Shown: piece by piece, positions 64 through 7,362 of the stretch
Layout of the letters: each line of letters starts with the position of its first letter
How positions within the stretch are numbered: the first letter of the stretch is position 1
IMG/VR virus record: IMGVR_UViG_3300027749_000540
Span: 1 to 20,813 of that record
Reading direction: 5' to 3' (one strand)
Length of the DNA: 20,813 nucleotides
DNA from: a virus
Notes under the pieces: generated by a model
Told to the model about the DNA's origin: nothing
The model's input: only the letters and a program-made list of their open reading frames with translations
Databases searched by the model: none
Made by a program: the position numbers and the translations under genes

Positions 64-1515
64 TTAGTCTTTTGCGTGTTTCATCATATGCTCATGAGAC
101 TTTGCGATTTCGGCTTGCATATCTTCCTTCGCAAAAGGCTTCAGTCTATTATACTTTGCAATGACAGCGCGAGCATGGACACGGTGAAGTGCATGTGTGC
201 TACCATCGGCATACTTGATCTTGTGTGGCATCATACCAGAATCAGCAGCCTTACGGATTTGATTCATGATATGCTCATCGGGTTCTGGACCTTCTGCTTC
301 GCCTGCTTCTTTGGCTTTTTGTTGTGCAATGTAAGCAGCAGTGCCTGGCTTTGGTGGGCGACCACGACCTTCGTCGAGTTCAACTTCTTCCTTTACAGGC
401 TTACCAGCAACCAGAGCAGCCTTAGCCTTTTCAAATGAACGATATCTTTTTGGATGATCATTAGATGGCTTATCAAGATCGCCCTTTTCTTTATCACCGA
501 AACGAACACGCCAAGTATTGTATCCACCTTCGCGACCGTGGTACATCATACCATTCTTATGATAATACTTTGCTTCTGGTCCTGTTCTAGGGTGATTGGA
601 CTGGACAAAAGAGTCATCATGTGGAGCCCTAAACTTGGCTTCATCAAGTTCAACTTCTTCCTTAGTGGCAAACTTCTTTTTAGCAGCATCCATCTTTGCA
701 TCAAAATCGCGCAACTTGGCAGTAAGTGCATCTTGTTGAGCCTTTGGCAATCCCTGACCAGGAGGCAGACCAGTTGGGCGATGCCCGTTGTAAACTGCTT
801 CATCAACATCATCACAGGAACAATCTTTGGTTTCTTTCATCTTAGAGGCAATCTTCTTATTGCGAAGTTTCTTGAAATCGGACTTTTCAAGTTTGCCGTC
901 TCCATCAACATCAAGTTTAGCCTGACCGCCAATCAATGCTTCGCCAAGAGCCTTCTTTTTCTTAGCCATAACTTTTTCAATATTGCGTTGTGTAGAGTTC
1001 TTGCTAGAATAAGTATTGAGTTCATAAGGGTGTGAACCACCTCTGTTATAAACTTGCATATGGATCGTGTGATCTTTTCCAGTTGTGTGATCTTTTGCTG
1101 GAAGATTTACAGTTGTCGTATTGCCTTCTGAAGGCTTCTTTGACATAAGACCAATGTGATGGAATCTATCATCATCAGATGCATTCAGCCCATACTTGGA
1201 ATGATGTGATAGCGCATGATCAACCGCATCTGTATATGACTTGTGGTAGATTGCATAGTCAGCACCACCGTGCTTTTCGTCAAGCGAAACTTCTTCAGTC
1301 TGAGAGGCTTTCAGATCAGCAGCCGTTGGTGCACCTTCTGATCCAGGCTTACGCATATGCTCACCAGAACCATTCTTAATACGTTTTTGCTTGGCATGGA
1401 TATTGTCCCATAGGCCACGCTTCTCATCAACCTGTTCGGCTTCTGTGTTCAGGACCTTTGATACCGCCTCAATCAGATCAGCGGAGAATTGATTTTTTAA
1501 GTTATTGTCTTCCAT
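64..1515 (-). CDS. Modular late protein with EEVxLDE repeats, EF-hand-like loop and AT-hook
   Basis: A 483-residue hydrophilic, modular protein. Visible elements in order are: a GLWDNIHAKQKR block (34-45) of a type I have seen in other T4-like phage virion proteins; EEVSLDE (74-80); LGE (190-192); an EF-hand-like loop DVDGDGKLEKSD (202-213); EEVELDEA (286-293); and EEVELDEG (376-383), followed at once by the AT-hook core GRGRPPK (383-389) and a C-terminal helical region. The L-x-E in each repeat fits the cleavage rule of T4 gp21 prohead protease, so the protein may be packaged and cut into pieces, one of them DNA-binding. Its start lies one base after the upstream stop (TAAGATG). It is the last gene of the late operon that begins at 4230. 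Function is inferred; no enzyme motif is seen. Confidence 0.75.
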   Translation of the reverse strand: MEDNNLKNQFSADLIEAVSKVLNTEAEQVDEKRGLWDNIHAKQKRIKNGSGEHMRKPGSEGAPTAADLKASQTEEVSLDEKHGGADYAIYHKSYTDAVDHALSHHSKYGLNASDDDRFHHIGLMSKKPSEGNTTTVNLPAKDHTTGKDHTIHMQVYNRGGSHPYELNTYSSKNSTQRNIEKVMAKKKKALGEALIGGQAKLDVDGDGKLEKSDFKKLRNKKIASKMKETKDCSCDDVDEAVYNGHRPTGLPPGQGLPKAQQDALTAKLRDFDAKMDAAKKKFATKEEVELDEAKFRAPHDDSFVQSNHPRTGPEAKYYHKNGMMYHGREGGYNTWRVRFGDKEKGDLDKPSNDHPKRYRSFEKAKAALVAGKPVKEEVELDEGRGRPPKPGTAAYIAQQKAKEAGEAEGPEPDEHIMNQIRKAADSGMMPHKIKYADGSTHALHRVHARAVIAKYNRLKPFAKEDMQAEIAKSHEHMMKHAKD

Positions 1516-1516
1516 C

Positions 1517-2098
1517 TTAGTCTCCGTCTGTGATCTTGATTTTGCGCTGCGCGGCTTTTGATCTATTGATTAAATATTTCTTTACATTATCCACATCTCT
1601 ATCACCTTGTGGACCACCTTTTGGATCGGGCAGTTGTTCTGCAGGAGGAGAGTGAAATCTTGGATCGTCTACTGGGTTTTTCTCTTGTCCCGGCTTGATA
1701 ACATTTGGGTCGCTCTTCAAGCGCCCCTTAATCTTGTTCAGGCTACTATCTGCGATAGCAGAATGTTCCTTATCAAGATTCATTTTCTTGCCAAGGTCTT
1801 TAACTGTTTTAGCCAAACCTTCAGCATTATCTATATCATTCTGTGTAGATGAATTCGTTGCTTGTGATTCTTTCTCAAGAGCAAACAACTTGTCCAGATG
1901 AACAGCGGCTTGTTGAACATCATCAACGCTTAAATCTTTAGGTAAAGAACTATAAAGAATCTGTGCTTTAGGAGACATATCAAATGCTTTGGTCGTATAG
2001 GTCCCTGCTGCAATCTGATCATTCTGATCAGATTCCAACTTCTTTTCACGGAGCATAATGTCCATAATGGAATGTTCTAGTGATCTATACTTTGACAT
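1517..2098 (-). CDS. Conserved late-operon protein, probably virion-associated
   Basis: A 193-residue hydrophilic protein with no catalytic motif. The frame is open to 2131, but the ATG at 2098 (MSKYRSLEHSI) is preferred because its A is shared with the upstream Dps stop (TAATG). The N-terminal helix RSLEHSIMDIMLREKK and the C-terminal block GDRDVDNVKKYLINRSK look like conserved ends joined by a variable, Pro/Asp/Lys-rich linker. I recall similar ends in other marine T4-like phage proteins, but cannot name a function. Its place between a Dps-like gene and the LDE-repeat gene suggests an internal or structural role. Confidence 0.7.
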   Translation of the reverse strand: MSKYRSLEHSIMDIMLREKKLESDQNDQIAAGTYTTKAFDMSPKAQILYSSLPKDLSVDDVQQAAVHLDKLFALEKESQATNSSTQNDIDNAEGLAKTVKDLGKKMNLDKEHSAIADSSLNKIKGRLKSDPNVIKPGQEKNPVDDPRFHSPPAEQLPDPKGGPQGDRDVDNVKKYLINRSKAAQRKIKITDGD

Positions 2099-2535
2099 TA
2101 CTTTCTTTCCAGTGTAGCACGAAGGAACCATGCATGTTTCTTGTGTGCATTGATACGATCTTGCAAGAAGTTTGACAGACCAACTTCCATCTCACCGCAT
2201 GATCTGTAAGCAGTTTGTAATGAAGCCAAGACAAAAGTATTTACCATTTGCAACTTTGCAACCATTTCTAATGCAGTTGGAACAGTGTCGTCATCTTGAA
2301 TGGTAGCAAGTTCTTTGAGACGACCAAATGATCCAGGCGCATATGCATTCAATGCTCTAATCTCTTCTGCAAATGCATCAATAGCGCCATAGACTTCTAA
2401 GTAAATAGTTTCAAAAAGTAAATGATATTCGTAGAAGTTGGGACCTTCAACATTCCAGTGGTAATAATGTGTTCGCACATACATAGCATATGTATCGGCA
2501 AATGCGCGTTTCATATCGTCAATCAAAGTTTCCAT
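2098..2535 (-). CDS. Dps-like ferritin (DNA-protection family)
   Basis: A 145-residue protein that fits the Dps fold of four helices with an inter-subunit iron site. The four classical ferroxidase ligands are present with the spacing of bacterial Dps: H26 (in HWNVEG), H38 (12 later), D53 (15 later) and E57 (4 later), in FYEYH and IDAFAEEIRALN contexts. Dps proteins form dodecamers that oxidise iron(II) with peroxide, and some coat DNA. No long basic N-terminal tail is seen, so DNA binding is uncertain. The gene overlaps both neighbours by one base (TAATG) inside a late operon, so it would be made with virion proteins. It could protect DNA late in infection or be packaged; the latter is speculation. 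Confidence 0.88.
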   Translation of the reverse strand: METLIDDMKRAFADTYAMYVRTHYYHWNVEGPNFYEYHLLFETIYLEVYGAIDAFAEEIRALNAYAPGSFGRLKELATIQDDDTVPTALEMVAKLQMVNTFVLASLQTAYRSCGEMEVGLSNFLQDRINAHKKHAWFLRATLERK

Positions 2536-2816
2536 TAGTTACAGTTCCATCTTCTTAATGACATTGCTTTCCGAGTTGGTCTGCCTTTTTCATCCTTCAT
2601 AGGACCAGGCATTCCACCCATTCTAGCACAAAATGATCTTCTTCTTCCAGCAGCCTTGCCCTTTGGGTCAAGTTTGCTAGGTGGTGTTGTTACAGCAGTC
2701 TTGATGCCGAAGTGTTTAGCGCCCTTGCGTGTTATTCCAGCGCCATCTTCAGTGGAACGATAATAACCCTTAGAGTCTTCGCCTCTTTCTGTAATGAACT
2801 CTTTAAACGTTTTCAT
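2535..2816 (-). CDS. Small conserved phage protein (SFCARM...RRWNC) with capsid-targeting-like N-terminus
   Basis: A 93-residue basic protein. Upstream in-frame starts exist at 2828 and 2819, but the ATG at 2816 is best spaced from the GGAG and gives MKTFKEFITE, very close to the N-terminal capsid-targeting peptide of T4 internal proteins (MKTYQEFIAE as I recall it). I-T-E at 8-10 would be a gp21-type cut site. The C-terminal half has the hallmark RRRSFCARMGG, a PMKDEKGRPTRK segment and LRRWNC at the end, a pattern I recognise as widespread in phages (probably DUF6321) with no known activity. The start overlaps the upstream gene by 14 bases and the stop shares an A with the Dps start. Confidence 0.8.
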   Translation of the reverse strand: MKTFKEFITERGEDSKGYYRSTEDGAGITRKGAKHFGIKTAVTTPPSKLDPKGKAAGRRRSFCARMGGMPGPMKDEKGRPTRKAMSLRRWNCN

Positions 2817-4230
2817 CATCTTCTCCATCGGTTAGGTTGCCAGATTTAATAATGGCTCTTCCTTTTTTGATCTTTGCCCAATGTGGAGGAGACATAGTGC
2901 CGTCTGCTTTGCGTCTGCCAGCAACTTTCACAGCCTTGACATCAGCGGTTGTTACTTCTTCTTCAATCTCTGCTTCTTCAATCACAGATGGATGCAAAGC
3001 AAATGCGCCCTGCATCTGCATTCCAAGATCAGCGGATGTCAGTGTTACGCCGATACCAGCAGCATAAGCGATGTTGAAGGATTCGTCCAGCGATTCATTC
3101 TTTGCTGTCTTAGCGGCTTTCATGTATTTCTTCTTAGCGATCATCTTAAGAGTCTTTTCAGGAATGCCCTTTGTCTTAAGATCGTGAATCGTGTTAGCCA
3201 GTCTTTCTTTTGATAAAGAAGACAGTTCATGCAAACGATCTTTATCTTCGTCCAAAGATGAAACGAAAGCACCGAACGCATCATCAAGCGTCTTGGCTTC
3301 ATGGAGATCGGAATCGACCTTATAAGCCTTGCCAGCCGAGATGTATGAGTTAACTCTAGAGAAAGCATATTGCTCTTGTGTCATCTTACCGATAGGCTTC
3401 CAATCGTTTAGCCCACGAGCATAAACTTCTTGTAATGTAGAGAACTCAATACCAGACTTAGCGGCTTTCTTCTGAAGTGATTCAGAGATAGCGTCTTTTG
3501 GTAGAATCGCTTCTAACATCTTTTGAAGTTGTGCGGTAAATGGTGTGTTGTCTTCTTTGATCATCGCCTCAATGATCTTGATCAAGTCGCTTTCGCTATG
3601 CGATTCAAAATCCGCAATAACCTGTTCAAATGATTCGTTAGCAGACATCTTGGGCATAATGCCCTGTGCTGCTGGATTCGGTGAAGTGATACTCTTGAGT
3701 GCGGTGCCCTTCATGAAAGACTGCAGCCGTGTTGCTTCAGCCTTTCTGATTGTGGGCAACAGACGAGCGGCAATCTTCTTGACAAGTTTGATTTTCTTAT
3801 CAACGATGCGGTCAACCTGAATCTTTTCAGGTGTGGAAAGTGTCGCGTAATCTACGCCCTTGCGAGCCGCAAATCTTTTCTTGACGATATTCCGAGCAGC
3901 AACCATTGCACGGCTCTTGATCTTATCATCAGATGCAAGTTTATGTTTTGCTACTTCTTTTGCGCGTTCGAGTTTAGGCTCGTTGCGTCTTAACGTTCGT
4001 GATCTTTGTTGGCGTTGTGCAAGTGTTAATGCTTTACGCTCTTGTAATACAGGGGAGTTGACTACGGCATCCTCGCTTTGTGTATTCACATTTTTCTGCT
4101 GAGGATTCATAATGATCTGATCAAGAGGTTTACCAGTCATCGACTTCTTGGTACTCTTAATCGCTGTTTCTTTTTCAAAAGACTTATTAATGTCTTTCTT
4201 GATTGGTTTAGTGGTCTTTTCCAATTTCAT
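2803..4230 (-). CDS. Large basic late protein, probable internal head or scaffold-associated protein
   Basis: A 475-residue protein, first gene after the TATAAATA box at 4301-4308. Residues 1-190 are strongly basic and helical, including a KKIKLVKKIAARLLPTIRKAE stretch typical of a family I have seen in marine T4-like phages. Residues 195-300 are acidic and helical. Around 267-300 is an EVYARGLNDWKP...YAFSRVNSYI block that recurs in such phage proteins. Several (L/I)xE sites (for example SSLDE and ESLDE) could be cut by a prohead protease. The annotated ATG sits almost on top of GGAG (CGGAGATG); a TTG two codons later (4224) is better spaced and may be the true start. No enzyme motif is seen. 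An internal or DNA-contacting role is inferred from charge and position. Confidence 0.75.
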   Translation of the reverse strand: MKLEKTTKPIKKDINKSFEKETAIKSTKKSMTGKPLDQIIMNPQQKNVNTQSEDAVVNSPVLQERKALTLAQRQQRSRTLRRNEPKLERAKEVAKHKLASDDKIKSRAMVAARNIVKKRFAARKGVDYATLSTPEKIQVDRIVDKKIKLVKKIAARLLPTIRKAEATRLQSFMKGTALKSITSPNPAAQGIMPKMSANESFEQVIADFESHSESDLIKIIEAMIKEDNTPFTAQLQKMLEAILPKDAISESLQKKAAKSGIEFSTLQEVYARGLNDWKPIGKMTQEQYAFSRVNSYISAGKAYKVDSDLHEAKTLDDAFGAFVSSLDEDKDRLHELSSLSKERLANTIHDLKTKGIPEKTLKMIAKKKYMKAAKTAKNESLDESFNIAYAAGIGVTLTSADLGMQMQGAFALHPSVIEEAEIEEEVTTADVKAVKVAGRRKADGTMSPPHWAKIKKGRAIIKSGNLTDGEDDENV

Positions 4231-4300
4231 CTCCGCGAGGATTGCCGTAGCCTTTTGACTCGTTATACTGCTAGGTTTGGCTTACCCTTACTAGCATTGT

Positions 4301-4308
4301 TATTTATA
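4301..4308 (-). promoter_or_regulatory. T4-type late promoter box TATAAATA
   Basis: Exact late-promoter consensus on the minus strand, about 70 bases upstream of the 475-residue gene, giving a leader of roughly 60 bases. A perfect 12-base palindrome (ATAATGCATTAT, 4309-4320) lies immediately upstream and includes the stop codon of the preceding gene. The leader contains a short GCTAG/CTAGC inverted repeat (4271-4296 region) and nothing else recognisable. Confidence 0.85.
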
Positions 4309-4316
4309 ATAATGCA

Positions 4317-4943
4317 TTATGCAAGTTCTTTTATTGTAAATGCAAACCACACATCCAGTTTTGTAGCATTATCAACACGTCTCATACACAAAGTTAACAT
4401 GTTTGGAGTATTTCCACCATAAAGAGACGCAGGACCTTCGTCGTTTGATGCATTTTTACCAATAATGATACCACTGTGTCGCATTATAGCACCATTTGGC
4501 GTAAATGTTGTTGCTGGATTGCTTGAATATTTGTCTTGATATACTCTATATTGGCTGTGGACGCCAAAAGTTGTCCACGCTGGAATTGTCCCAGTGATGG
4601 TTATATCGCCTTCATACCATTCGTAAATAATAGTGCTTGCGTTTGCATTATTATTTCCTATCTCATATTCGACTATTTCAATCAAGTCATTAATATTTGT
4701 ACTACCGTTTCTAAAACTTACAACAGGTCTCATCGTATCATCCATGGTCCATCCACGGTTTGCATTTGTTGCGTGATTGTTGAATGAATATAAACTTCCC
4801 GCATCTTGATTTATAATCGCACTCACAGGAAACCTATTGTTAACCGAAACAGGCTGACCAGACAATGTTGCGATTTGATTAACTTCAAACAGCGTCTTTG
4901 CTTGTGCCTGAAATGCACCGTTCGCTGTGTTATATTGAGCCAT
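4317..4943 (-). CDS. Probable virion (tail/fibre-associated) protein
   Basis: A 208-residue protein rich in Asn, Thr, Ser and aromatic residues, predicted mostly beta, with no signal peptide or membrane segment. The N-terminus MAQYNTANGAFQ...TLFEVNQIATLSG...VNNRFPV resembles the leading segment of tail-fibre or tail-associated proteins of marine T4-like phages; the rest has no motif I recognise. Start and upstream stop overlap as TAATG. The gene ends just before the late promoter at 4301, so it closes the 7362-4317 transcription unit. The structural assignment rests on composition and context. Confidence 0.65.
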   Translation of the reverse strand: MAQYNTANGAFQAQAKTLFEVNQIATLSGQPVSVNNRFPVSAIINQDAGSLYSFNNHATNANRGWTMDDTMRPVVSFRNGSTNINDLIEIVEYEIGNNNANASTIIYEWYEGDITITGTIPAWTTFGVHSQYRVYQDKYSSNPATTFTPNGAIMRHSGIIIGKNASNDEGPASLYGGNTPNMLTLCMRRVDNATKLDVWFAFTIKELA

Positions 4944-6190
4944 TATTTCTTACCTTGATCTGCAACCCACTTCTTACCAATTGGGTTTCTGATTGCACCA
5001 GCAGCAATCTTGCGGACTTTCTTATGGACGTGATGCAGATGATCACTGTCATCCTTACTGTTATCGACAACAGTGAAATGTTCATCACCAAACTGCTTCT
5101 GGAAATGACCGATGTTATTCTGTGTCTGGTGCCACATCTTTTCGACATGCTCATCAGGCAAAGAACGATCACGCATTCTGTTGCGCTTCTTAGCAGTATT
5201 CAGGTCGGTGTTAACAAAGATCATGTGTGTGTCATAACCCAAAGACCGAAGATGATCTGAGTGTGCTTTGATCTTCTCTGGATCTTTACCAGTGCCATCG
5301 ATCACCATACCCAACTTGTTCTGTGCATAAATGTCAGACCGCTTCTTGGTATTCGCTTTGGCTCTATTGCGAATCGCTTGACCTTTTTCAGAATAGATAT
5401 TTTCTGGTGTAGATTTCATGCCCTGTCTGGCCATGCCTTTTTCAAACACATCATCAGAGTTGACTTGTTTAAATCCAAGACCATGTGTAACATTTCTTGA
5501 CACATAAGACTTACCAGAACCTGGACCACCAGCAAGGAAGATTGCCTTCAACTTAGCAGGATCATGGACTCCTTCACTGATAAACGCTTCAGTGAAAAAT
5601 GTTTTAAATCTAACAAATGTGCTCTCTTTCAACTTCATTCCTCCTCTGACATCATTGAACAACTCTGTAGCGTGTTCATGTGACATATGTTTCGGCAGAC
5701 CTTTCTTGAAGGAATCGAGGTCATTGTTCTTTGCATGTTCGCGCATCTTCGAAGCGGACATACCTTCTGTTCCTTCAGCGTCTGGATCACGATGCCCAGC
5801 AGACACGACATTGATGCTCTTGAAGTTGAAGTCTTTTCCTGGACCATTGTACTTCTTTACGATCTTGTCATATTCAGGAACACGATCAGAGCCAGCAACC
5901 ATCGTAACATGGCTGTAACCTTTCTGGTGCAGATTTCTCAAATGCGAAATGAATGACGGGCTTTCTTTATCAGAGACTGCAATGTTTGCGCCAGGGAATG
6001 CTCTTCCCAGATGAAGTTTCTTTTGTTCAGGAGTAAGAGGGTTCTTCTTAGCGTCTTGAGTATGACTTGCTACGATCAGATGATCTGCACCTTGCTTATC
6101 TGCAAGAGACTTGACATGGTTGACAAGTTTCTCATGCCCAGTTGTAGGCGGATTAATACGACCAAAAGTGAAGACTACTTTCTTAGACAT
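4943..6190 (-). CDS. Bifunctional HxGH-type nucleotidyltransferase fused to P-loop kinase
   Basis: A 415-residue two-domain protein. Residues 1-185 form a cytidylyltransferase/NMN-adenylyltransferase-like domain: GRINPPTTGH (10-19, the (H/T)xGH nucleotide site), SDR (101-103) and MSASKMR (144-150, the ISSSxxR equivalent). Residues 212-380 are a P-loop kinase of the AAA_33/zeta/polynucleotide-kinase-like type: Walker A GGPGSGKS (221-228), NSDD (244-247), VIDGTGK (296-302) and a basic lid KKRNRMRDRS (334-343). Between the domains lies FVRFKTFFTEAFISE (192-206), a capsid-targeting-like tag whose I-S-E could be cut to free the kinase. The substrate is unknown: NMN/NAD for the first domain and RNA, DNA or a nucleotide for the second are all possible. 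It starts two bases after the ligase-like gene stop, implying joint expression. Confidence 0.85.
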   Translation of the reverse strand: MSKKVVFTFGRINPPTTGHEKLVNHVKSLADKQGADHLIVASHTQDAKKNPLTPEQKKLHLGRAFPGANIAVSDKESPSFISHLRNLHQKGYSHVTMVAGSDRVPEYDKIVKKYNGPGKDFNFKSINVVSAGHRDPDAEGTEGMSASKMREHAKNNDLDSFKKGLPKHMSHEHATELFNDVRGGMKLKESTFVRFKTFFTEAFISEGVHDPAKLKAIFLAGGPGSGKSYVSRNVTHGLGFKQVNSDDVFEKGMARQGMKSTPENIYSEKGQAIRNRAKANTKKRSDIYAQNKLGMVIDGTGKDPEKIKAHSDHLRSLGYDTHMIFVNTDLNTAKKRNRMRDRSLPDEHVEKMWHQTQNNIGHFQKQFGDEHFTVVDNSKDDSDHLHHVHKKVRKIAAGAIRNPIGKKWVADQGKK

Positions 6191-6192
6191 TC

Positions 6193-7362
6193 TTATTGTT
6201 CCCTATTGAAGTTAGATGCACTGAAATCCGCTCTGTCAACAAGTTTGGTTGGGCGATTATGCCGCACAACAACGAAACCTTCTGGCTTGGATTTCTTACC
6301 GCGAATATGATGCTCGAATTCGGAATTGGATGAAAGCGTATTTACCAGCACATCTTTTGCTTTTTGCAAGTGCTTGTGCATAGTTAAAATGTTTTCAAAA
6401 TGATTTCTGTTCTGTGTGACATGGCTGATTGCTGCATCTCTTTCAGCAGTCTTAGCCATCTTGGCTTTGTCACTTTTCACCGCATCGATCTTTTTTCGAT
6501 GTGAGTTGTCGTAATGCTCAATGAAACCATTAACACTAGGCGTCGTGCCAGTGCGTACCGTGTGGTTGATGTATGTCTTGAGAGGAACTTCATGCCCCTT
6601 GATTGCTTCATACGATTCAGAAGGCGTATTTTTATGCGTCTGAGCAGCGGCTCTCATATGCTTCGCAAACTTAGCCTGTTGTTCGGCTGTGTAATCCAAC
6701 TTGTCCAAAGGATGTTCGGTTGAAATCAGGTGGACATCTTTGTTCTTCTTGAACGTGGTCGCTAGATCGGGCGCATATTGTGCTGCCATGTCTTCCATAT
6801 TCTTACCCTTATACGCAGTATGCACCGCAACTCCTATTTCAGAGTTGAGTGCTTCTTTGCCTTGCTTAGAGTTTTTTGGTGCAGAATATGTGATGGTGTT
6901 TGGCGTGAACCTTACCTTATTGCGTGTCTGTGTGACATCGCCTCTGGTATGCATGATATCACCTTGATAGACGCCAGTCTTGGGCGCAACTTTAGGCAGA
7001 TGCTCTAGTGCAGCAGTGAGTTTTGACACAAGCCCAGGAGCGTGCCCATGATTCTTTATGACATCTTCTGGCGTGTAGTTCAGTTTTGGGTTCTTGTTGA
7101 ATGCAGACTTTGATGCAACAAAGAACTTCCCGTTCTCTGGATTGGTCCCAAAAATGACAGAAGGTGACCCATCATATTTCATGGTCACCTTCGTCTCATT
7201 ATGGTTGCCCGTGAGTCTATCATGGACATCTTTTAGGTTGTGGAACGCATGTGAAAATCCTGCATGACCTGCATTGATTACATGGTCTTCAGCATGTTCT
7301 AGATGCTTTAACTTTTGCTCTGATTCAACAGACGATTCAGATAAGAAAGAATAGAAACTCAT
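6193..7362 (-). CDS. Ligase-like covalent nucleotidyltransferase (KxDG family)
   Basis: A 389-residue protein with the motif set of RNA/DNA ligases and capping enzymes. Motif I is KYDG (62-65, K62 the likely AMP-accepting lysine). VYQGDIM (131-137) resembles motif III, IGVAVHTAY (176-184) motif IIIa, EGFVVV (361-366) motif IV, and TKLVD (372-376) motif V. About 150 helical residues sit between IIIa and IV, unusual for T4 Rnl1/Rnl2, so this is a divergent group (it may match DUF6267). The N-terminus MSFYSFLSE matches the [FY]xxF[IL]xE capsid-targeting-like tag. The start follows a good GAGG site. It is paired with a nucleotidyltransferase-kinase 2 bp downstream, which suggests nucleic-acid end repair, but ligation itself is not shown by sequence. 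Confidence 0.8.
   Translation of the reverse strand: MSFYSFLSESSVESEQKLKHLEHAEDHVINAGHAGFSHAFHNLKDVHDRLTGNHNETKVTMKYDGSPSVIFGTNPENGKFFVASKSAFNKNPKLNYTPEDVIKNHGHAPGLVSKLTAALEHLPKVAPKTGVYQGDIMHTRGDVTQTRNKVRFTPNTITYSAPKNSKQGKEALNSEIGVAVHTAYKGKNMEDMAAQYAPDLATTFKKNKDVHLISTEHPLDKLDYTAEQQAKFAKHMRAAAQTHKNTPSESYEAIKGHEVPLKTYINHTVRTGTTPSVNGFIEHYDNSHRKKIDAVKSDKAKMAKTAERDAAISHVTQNRNHFENILTMHKHLQKAKDVLVNTLSSNSEFEHHIRGKKSKPEGFVVVRHNRPTKLVDRADFSASNFNREQ

What the first reader, a model, noticed from the sequence alone, without database searches (positions are those of the whole stretch)
2535..7362. Shared capsid-targeting-like tags on several late proteins, including two enzymes
Seen: MKTFKEFITE (93-residue gene), MSFYSFLSE (ligase-like gene) and FVRFKTFFTEAFISE (inside the nucleotidyltransferase-kinase) share [FY]xxF[IL]xE. 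Known: T4 internal proteins carry an N-terminal targeting peptide (MKTYQEFIAE, from memory) that sends them into the prohead and is removed by gp21, which cuts after (L/I)xE. Inference: these proteins, enzymes among them, are packaged in the head and injected with the DNA.
Basis: partly seen in the sequence, partly recalled or inferred. Interest (0 to 1): 0.85.

Follow-up and report, generated by a model that had tools for sequence, protein, structure and literature searches.

The report
Portable capsid-entry tag on phage enzymes
Several enzymes of this T4-like water phage start with the same short peptide that phage T4 uses to load proteins into its head, and published mass spectrometry of related phages finds most of the proteins that carry the peptide inside the virus particle, so the phage probably delivers ready-made enzymes along with its DNA.

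Summary
The DUF6321 gene (MKTFKEFITE) and the DUF6267 gene (MSFYSFLSE) carry the motif exactly, as in the T4 capsid-targeting sequence MKTYQEFIAE. The third copy, inside the nucleotidyltransferase-kinase, is an imperfect composite. The tag is far above chance: 102 of 1053 genes in related contigs against 1.3 expected, and 0 of 4671 at internal methionines. The same search in 100 kb of T4 finds only IPII and IPIII. The tag precedes about two dozen unrelated protein families and comes and goes independently of the domains. In three published cyanophage virion proteomes, 5 of 7 strictly tagged proteins were in particles (background 18%, p=0.0025), including all five tagged enzymes. The capsid protein of those phages keeps T4's [IL]xE cleavage site. 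DUF6321 separates the two halves of the signal: the aromatic half occurs only when the tag is N-terminal, while [IL]xE is also kept where the domain sits inside long proteins. DUF6267 models as an RNA-ligase-like fold with an invariant KxDG; its tag is disordered. Packaging is well supported for relatives, untested for this phage; injection and the enzymes' role are inference. Verdict: T4-type capsid targeting, extended to a swappable set of enzymes.

The parts
7336..7362 (-). N-terminal capsid-targeting-like tag MSFYSFLSE of the DUF6267 protein; predicted cut after E9
   Evidence: conserved in 60/74 distinct homologues; disordered in the model, residues 1-16 pLDDT <50
6193..7362 (-). DUF6267 protein, 389 aa, RNA-ligase-like covalent nucleotidyltransferase with invariant KxDG, EGxV and KxV motifs
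   Evidence: Pfam DUF6267 4e-103; invariant K62,D64,G65,E361,G362,V364,K373,V375; the VIA rows are all RNA/DNA ligases, best Z 9.4
4943..6190 (-). NMNAT-like nucleotidyltransferase (res 1-189) joined to a polynucleotide-kinase-like P-loop kinase (res 207-415)
   Evidence: fold matches NadR, Pnkp, T4 Pnk, PSTK, PPAT
5573..5617 (-). Internal composite motif FVRFKTFFTEAFISE between the two domains; two possible cuts (FTE, ISE), the second directly before kinase GVHD
   Evidence: only disordered stretch of the model is 190-208; [IL]xE precedes G[VLI][HYN]D in most fused and separate kinases
5636..5647 (-). Possible internal translation start for a separately made, tagged kinase: AGAGGAGGA next to ATG (MKLKESTFVRFKTFFTE...)
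   Evidence: but homologous NTases without a kinase also have purine runs before this conserved Met, so weak
2787..2816 (-). N-terminal tag MKTFKEFITE of the DUF6321 protein; predicted cut after E10, mature start RGEDSKG
   Evidence: T4 IPI begins MKTFKEF...ITE
2535..2816 (-). DUF6321 protein, 93 aa
   Evidence: Pfam DUF6321 2.9e-14
64..1515 (-). 483-aa protein with three EEV-x-LDE sites (SLDE|K, ELDE|A, ELDE|G), possibly a head polyprotein cut by the same protease
   Evidence: 3 observed, 0.01 expected in shuffles; no homologue found in viral contigs

Best explanation
The N-terminal peptides are T4-type capsid-targeting sequences. In the late phase the aromatic half (F/Y at T4 positions 4 and 7) docks the enzyme on the prohead scaffold core, so that it is enclosed as the shell forms. 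The gp21-type prohead protease then cuts after [IL]xE, releasing the folded enzyme inside the head, where it stays with the DNA and enters the next host. The tag is portable: the same ten residues are fused to many unrelated proteins, giving a swappable payload. Where a payload domain lies inside a longer protein only the [IL]xE cut site is kept, as between the nucleotidyltransferase and the kinase here. Shown by sequence: tag conservation, register, modularity, cut-site conservation. Shown by published mass spectrometry in relatives: tagged enzymes are in virion preparations. Inferred: docking, cutting and injection in this phage, and that ligase-like protein, kinase and nucleotidyltransferase act at once on infection (RNA-end repair or NAD salvage).
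For: Enrichment 102 observed vs 1.3 expected, internal-Met control 0/4671; T4 control finds IPII and IPIII only. Consensus M-K-x-F-K-x-[FY]-[LI]-T-E, first aromatic at residue 4 in 67 and at residue 3 in 23 of 95 distinct N-termini; in T4 residues 4/7 target and 8/10 are for processing (PMC9026906). Unrelated domains share it: DUF6267, NTase, kinase, DUF6321, HAD phosphatase, NT5C-like, adenylate kinase, SAM lyase, protein-kinase-like. S-CREM2: 3/219 proteins strictly tagged, all three in the virion and all non-structural enzymes; with S-SZBM1 and S-SCSM1, 5 of 7 tagged CDS vs 127/719 overall, p=0.0025. S-SZBM1's DUF6267 lacks the tag and is not in its virion list. Capsid protein cut site FLTE|A of T4 aligns with LLTE|A, ILTE|A, FLAE|A. 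DUF6321: aromatic half in 22/29 stand-alone and 0/22 embedded copies, [IL]xE in 25/29 and 21/22. T7-like phages have DUF6321 without the tag, 4/4.
Against: Two strictly tagged S-SZBM1 proteins (gp191, gp192) were not detected in virions, though both are small. The tagged sample with proteomes is seven proteins in three phages. The authors of those proteomes could not exclude carry-over of abundant proteins (PMC10665884, PMC9602691). DUF6267 in several cyanophages is untagged, so packaging is not essential to its function. One large related contig (164 kb) has only one tagged gene. No cleaved N-terminus is known to me for any of these proteins. In the window's nearest relatives the NTase is alone and ends ...RFKNWIS, so the window's internal motif may be an NTase tail.
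Confidence: 0.82

Rival explanations
1. The tag is a docking peptide for the prohead core and the proteins are assembly helpers that end up trapped in heads; it is not evolved for delivery to the next host.
For: Small tagged proteins lie by terminase and neck genes; DUF6321 lies between scaffold and capsid genes in T7-like phages. Targeting for assembly and targeting for delivery would look alike in proteomes.
Against: Most identifiable tagged proteins are enzymes of nucleotide, RNA or SAM chemistry with no known assembly role; a SAM lyase makes sense at DNA entry, against restriction-modification.
Confidence: 0.12
2. The enzymes are found in virion preparations only because they are abundant, and the shared N-terminus reflects something else, such as a common translation-start or degradation signal.
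For: Carry-over is stated as possible by the proteome authors.
Against: Codons vary within the tag, so selection is on protein; untagged replication and metabolic enzymes such as the DNA polymerase, NrdA and PhoH are not on the S-CREM2 virion list; the match to the T4 register and the protease cut site is specific.
Confidence: 0.04
3. For the third copy only: the internal motif of the nucleotidyltransferase-kinase is the remnant of a gene fusion with a formerly separate tagged kinase, or an NTase C-terminal tail, and no longer works as tag or cut site.
For: NTases of L001-L003 end NESFI[IV]RFKNWIS or similar; separate kinases with their own tag exist (L028 MKRFSFFLQEEENLQEG).
Against: An [IL]xE directly before the kinase is kept in several divergent fusions (LLTE, LLVE, LLIE, IIRE, TLTE) and the stretch is the only disordered linker of the model.
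Confidence: 0.4

Closest known systems
T4 internal proteins IPI, IPII, IPIII and their capsid-targeting sequence (PMC9026906)
   Same: 10-residue N-terminal MKTYQEFIAE / MKTFKEF...ITE, aromatic residues at 4 and 7, I at 8, E at 10, gp21 cut
   Different: T4 IPs are small proteins; here the tag is on ligase-, kinase-, NTase-, phosphatase- and SAM-lyase-type proteins
T4 Alt, ADP-ribosyltransferase packaged and injected
   Same: An enzyme with a cut N-terminal propeptide (MELITELFDE) carried in the head
   Different: Alt's propeptide lacks the aromatic pattern; no Alt homologue was seen here
Non-structural enzymes in cyanophage virions (S-CREM2, S-SCSM1, S-SZBM1, S-CRM01)
   Same: Homologous NTases, and kinases with the same tag, detected by mass spectrometry
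   Different: In the parts read, the papers do not report a targeting tag; the packaging route was left open
phiKZ / SPN3US prohead-protease substrates
   Same: Head proteins cut after glutamate behind a short motif; propeptides with redundant sites (PMC9026906)
   Different: Diverged proteases with other site preferences; no shared 10-residue tag was tested here

Membership tests
T4-type capsid-targeting sequence | N-terminal ~10 residues with aromatics at T4 positions 4 and 7, I/L at 8, E at 10 | tested here: met
   Two window genes exactly, one in T4 register and one a residue shorter; 95 distinct N-termini; T4 IPII/IPIII recovered by the same search
T4-type capsid-targeting sequence | Phage encodes an S77 prohead protease that cuts the capsid protein at [IL]xE | tested here: inconclusive
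   Met in relatives: S77 protease in 5/5 large contigs, capsid site conserved in three isolates; the window's own head genes are not in the 20.8 kb fragment
T4-type capsid-targeting sequence | Tagged protein is inside the virion | tested here: inconclusive
   Met for 5 of 7 tagged proteins of isolates with published proteomes; not measured for this phage
T4-type capsid-targeting sequence | Tag removed by the protease, new N-terminus after E | not testable with these tools
   No N-terminomic data held
T4-type capsid-targeting sequence | Tag is sufficient to carry a foreign protein into the head | not testable with these tools
   Needs a packaging experiment; shown in T4 (PMC9026906)
Covalent nucleotidyltransferase / RNA ligase superfamily (DUF6267) | Motif I KxDG and motif IV/V-like residues | tested here: met
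   K62,D64,G65 and E361,G362,V364,K373,V375 invariant in 43 homologues
Covalent nucleotidyltransferase / RNA ligase superfamily (DUF6267) | Ligase fold | tested here: inconclusive
   The VIA rows are ligases throughout, Naegleria RNA ligase Z 9.4, T4 Rnl1 7.8, but Foldseek E is only 0.065
Covalent nucleotidyltransferase / RNA ligase superfamily (DUF6267) | Adenylation of the motif I lysine and strand joining | not testable with these tools
   Needs biochemistry
NadR-type NMNAT-kinase | NMNAT domain followed by ribosylnicotinamide kinase | tested here: inconclusive
   NadR is the top Foldseek hit for the whole chain, but the kinase alone gives its best VIA scores with PSTK and polynucleotide kinase and the NTase with PPAT

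The most novel reading that the evidence does not exclude
T4-like phages of aquatic bacteria use one portable ten-residue tag to load a swappable enzyme kit into the head, including an RNA-ligase-like protein, a polynucleotide-kinase-like protein and HAD phosphatases, so that cleaved host or phage RNA (or depleted NAD) can be repaired from the moment of DNA entry, before any phage gene is expressed. Internal [IL]xE sites turn longer payload proteins into polyproteins that are split inside the head.
Probability: 0.25. Interest if true: 0.85.

Novelty: new variant of a known kind. Interest (0 to 1): 0.7.

Why it matters
Enzymes keep turning up in cyanophage virions and their discoverers could not tell whether they were cargo or contamination. 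A conserved tag predicts cargo from sequence alone, so the virion payload of uncultured T4-like phages becomes readable from metagenomes and directly testable. It also gives a likely place of action to several domains of unknown function and suggests early counter-defence by delivered enzymes.

Tried and rejected
Homologues of the 483-aa protein (64-1515) in viral contigs: none. Pfam on many other tagged proteins: no match. Reading every internal match as a tag: rejected, because the loosened pattern also falls in the gp41 helicase core. An internal start for the kinase: AGAGGAGGA next to ATG looks good, but similar purine runs precede the same conserved Met in NTases without a kinase. Sequence search of DUF6267 against solved structures: no credible hit. 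Full record of the 164-kb contig G001: only one tagged gene, so the tag set per phage can be small. Megablast of the window against phages: only a 180-base uvsX match. The 14 virion proteins of S-CREM1 are named only in supplementary tables and a figure, which were not readable here, so they were not used.
Full report
What was checked. The window is a 20.8 kb IMG/VR fragment of a T4-like phage: uvsX and gp41 lie at one end and a block of unknown late-type genes at the other, nearly all on the minus strand. The record holds no head genes, so relatives had to carry the test.

The motif. FVRFKTFFTEAFISE (5617-5573) does not quite: it is internal and splits the pattern over two glutamates. The families are DUF6321, DUF6267, and a CTP_transf_like domain joined to an AAA_33/Zeta-type P-loop domain.

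Is it chance? In 80 related contigs 102 of 1053 gene-like ORFs carry the strict motif within eight residues after an ATG near the start. The rate of internal matches predicts 1.3, and internal ATG codons give 0 of 4671. These loci were chosen for DUF6267, so that family dominates: of 105 hits to a slightly looser pattern, 63 are DUF6267, 12 are NTase, kinase or DUF6321, and 30 fall outside these families, in about 20 unrelated clusters. Those 30 alone are still far above the expectation. In 100 kb of T4 the same search finds two genes, IPII and IPIII. Among 95 distinct tagged N-termini the first aromatic is residue 4 in 67 and residue 3 in 23, with K most common at residue 2 and T most common before the Glu: M-K-[STKN]-F-K-x-[FY]-[LI]-T-E. 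Codons vary, so the protein is what is kept.

Homologues. Of 74 distinct DUF6267 homologues closest to the window, 60 have the strict tag, 9 a relaxed one and 5 a near miss. More distant DUF6267 proteins of P-HM2, S-PM2, S-SZBM1 and S-CRM01 start directly at the domain, while Stenotrophomonas phage DLP_6 has MMKFTQFLAE. Many NTases begin MKFRDFLREQ, MKGFKDYIVE, MKSFKEHLTE and the like. Where DUF6267 and NTase are fused there is one tag, at the front. So the tag is gained and lost apart from the domains.

Virion evidence. S-CREM2 has a published virion list with coordinates (PMC10665884). Three of its 219 proteins carry the strict tag: SAM lyase MKDFDSFLEE, APH/ChoK-like kinase MKRFDAFLTE, cytidylyltransferase MKNFSSFLTE. 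All three are in the virion (p=0.013). The SAM lyase assignment is Pfam PF23780, E 2e-19. Near-tags sit on other detected proteins: gp13 MKDLHSFLTE, gp136 MQTFSMFFSE, and the Cas9-like protein with FASFMAE shortly after its start; one 55-aa near-tagged protein, gp175, was not detected. In S-SZBM1 (PMC9146016) the only enzyme detected is the cytidylyltransferase, tagged MRFRQFIIE; its DUF6267 is untagged and not on the list, but two small tagged proteins are not on it either. In S-SCSM1 (PMC9602691) the only strictly tagged annotated gene is the NMNAT, MKSFLQFLKE, a virion protein. Together 5 of 7 tagged proteins against 127 of 719, p=0.0025. The S-CRM01 kinase reported in virions (Dreher 2011, as cited in PMC10665884) begins MISFDQFLSE. 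The proteome authors raised carry-over as an alternative; the tag argues against it.

Protease. T4 gp23 carries FLTE|A at its known cut site. The aligned positions in the three cyanophages read LLTE|A, ILTE|A and FLAE|A. Five of five large related contigs have an S77 protease.

Two halves of the signal. T4 work assigns targeting mainly to residues 4 and 7 and processing to 8 and 10 (PMC9026906). DUF6321 shows the same split by evolution. Stand-alone copies have the aromatic pair in 22 of 29 and [IL]xE near the domain in 25 of 29. Copies inside longer proteins (129-1093 aa) have the aromatic pair in 0 of 22 but [IL]xE in 21 of 22, 20 of them within 0-1 residue of the domain start. T7-like phages carry DUF6321 with neither, close to scaffold and capsid genes. 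The SAM lyase shows the pattern too: N-terminal tag in S-CREM2, but preceded by internal ITYREFIAE|G and ESFSDFLNE|G in long proteins of S-SZBM1 and P-TIM40; there the aromatic half is kept as well.

The enzymes. The DUF6267 model is confident (pLDDT 91) except residues 1-16, the tag, and the last three residues. KxDG and other nucleotidyltransferase-like motifs are invariant. Foldseek is weak (best E 0.065, DNA ligase IV) but the second look lists ligases throughout, RNA ligases first, Z 9.4. The NTase-kinase model has one disordered stretch, residues 190-208, which is the internal motif. As a whole it resembles NadR; the kinase alone resembles PSTK and polynucleotide kinases (Z 16-17, T4 Pnk 14.1) and the NTase resembles PPAT (Z 14-15). 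RNA-end repair and NAD salvage both remain open.

The internal motif. Several fused kinases of other contigs are preceded by LLTE, LLVE, LLIE, IIRE or TLTE, then GVHD, which suggests a cut between the domains. But the window's nearest relatives have the NTase alone, ending RFKNWIS, so the motif may descend from an NTase tail. I do not count it as a targeting tag.

Conclusion. Works like and very probably is a T4-type CTS: sequence criteria met, virion presence met in relatives, removal and sufficiency untested. Injection and role are inference. The library search found no paper linking capsid targeting to cyanophages beyond a T4 review; that review already suggested that the CTS lets T4-like phages package varied proteins.

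Noticed in passing
window 64-1515 (-): 483-aa protein with three EEV-x-LDE repeats (0.01 expected by shuffling) between small segments and an EF-hand-like DVDGDGKLEKSDF; looks like a head polyprotein. S-SCSM1 gp92, a virion protein, also has KEEVELDE.
   Followed up: partly
L067:1864-2439: Tagged adenylate kinase (MKSFKQYFFEA..., Pfam ADK 3.6e-44) in a contig that also holds DUF6267, NTase and PNK-like kinase genes.
   Followed up: no
L007:8090-8713, L016:4595-5221, L039:9054-9632: HAD-type phosphatases and an NT5C-like nucleotidase carry the tag; with the kinase and ligase-like protein they could complete an RNA end-repair set.
   Followed up: partly
L087:26312-26629, L094:2397-2726, L179:44215-44535: A ~106-aa family (MKSFKSFLSE / MKSYKQFLSE / MKTFKQFMSE, then SVNI[SA]GDFNG) sits near terminase genes in three cyanophages but is not reported in virions of S-SZBM1 or S-SCSM1.
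   Followed up: no
L197-L200: DUF6321 lies between scaffold and major capsid genes in Pelagibacter T7-like phages, and near them in P-SCSP2, without any tag.
   Followed up: partly
window 2098-2535 (-): A Dps/ferritin-like gene overlaps the end of the DUF6321 gene by one base; it has no tag.
   Followed up: no
window 5636-5647 (-): AGAGGAGGA abuts an in-frame ATG just before the internal motif; it could give a separate tagged kinase, as T4 gene 21 has an internal start.
   Followed up: partly
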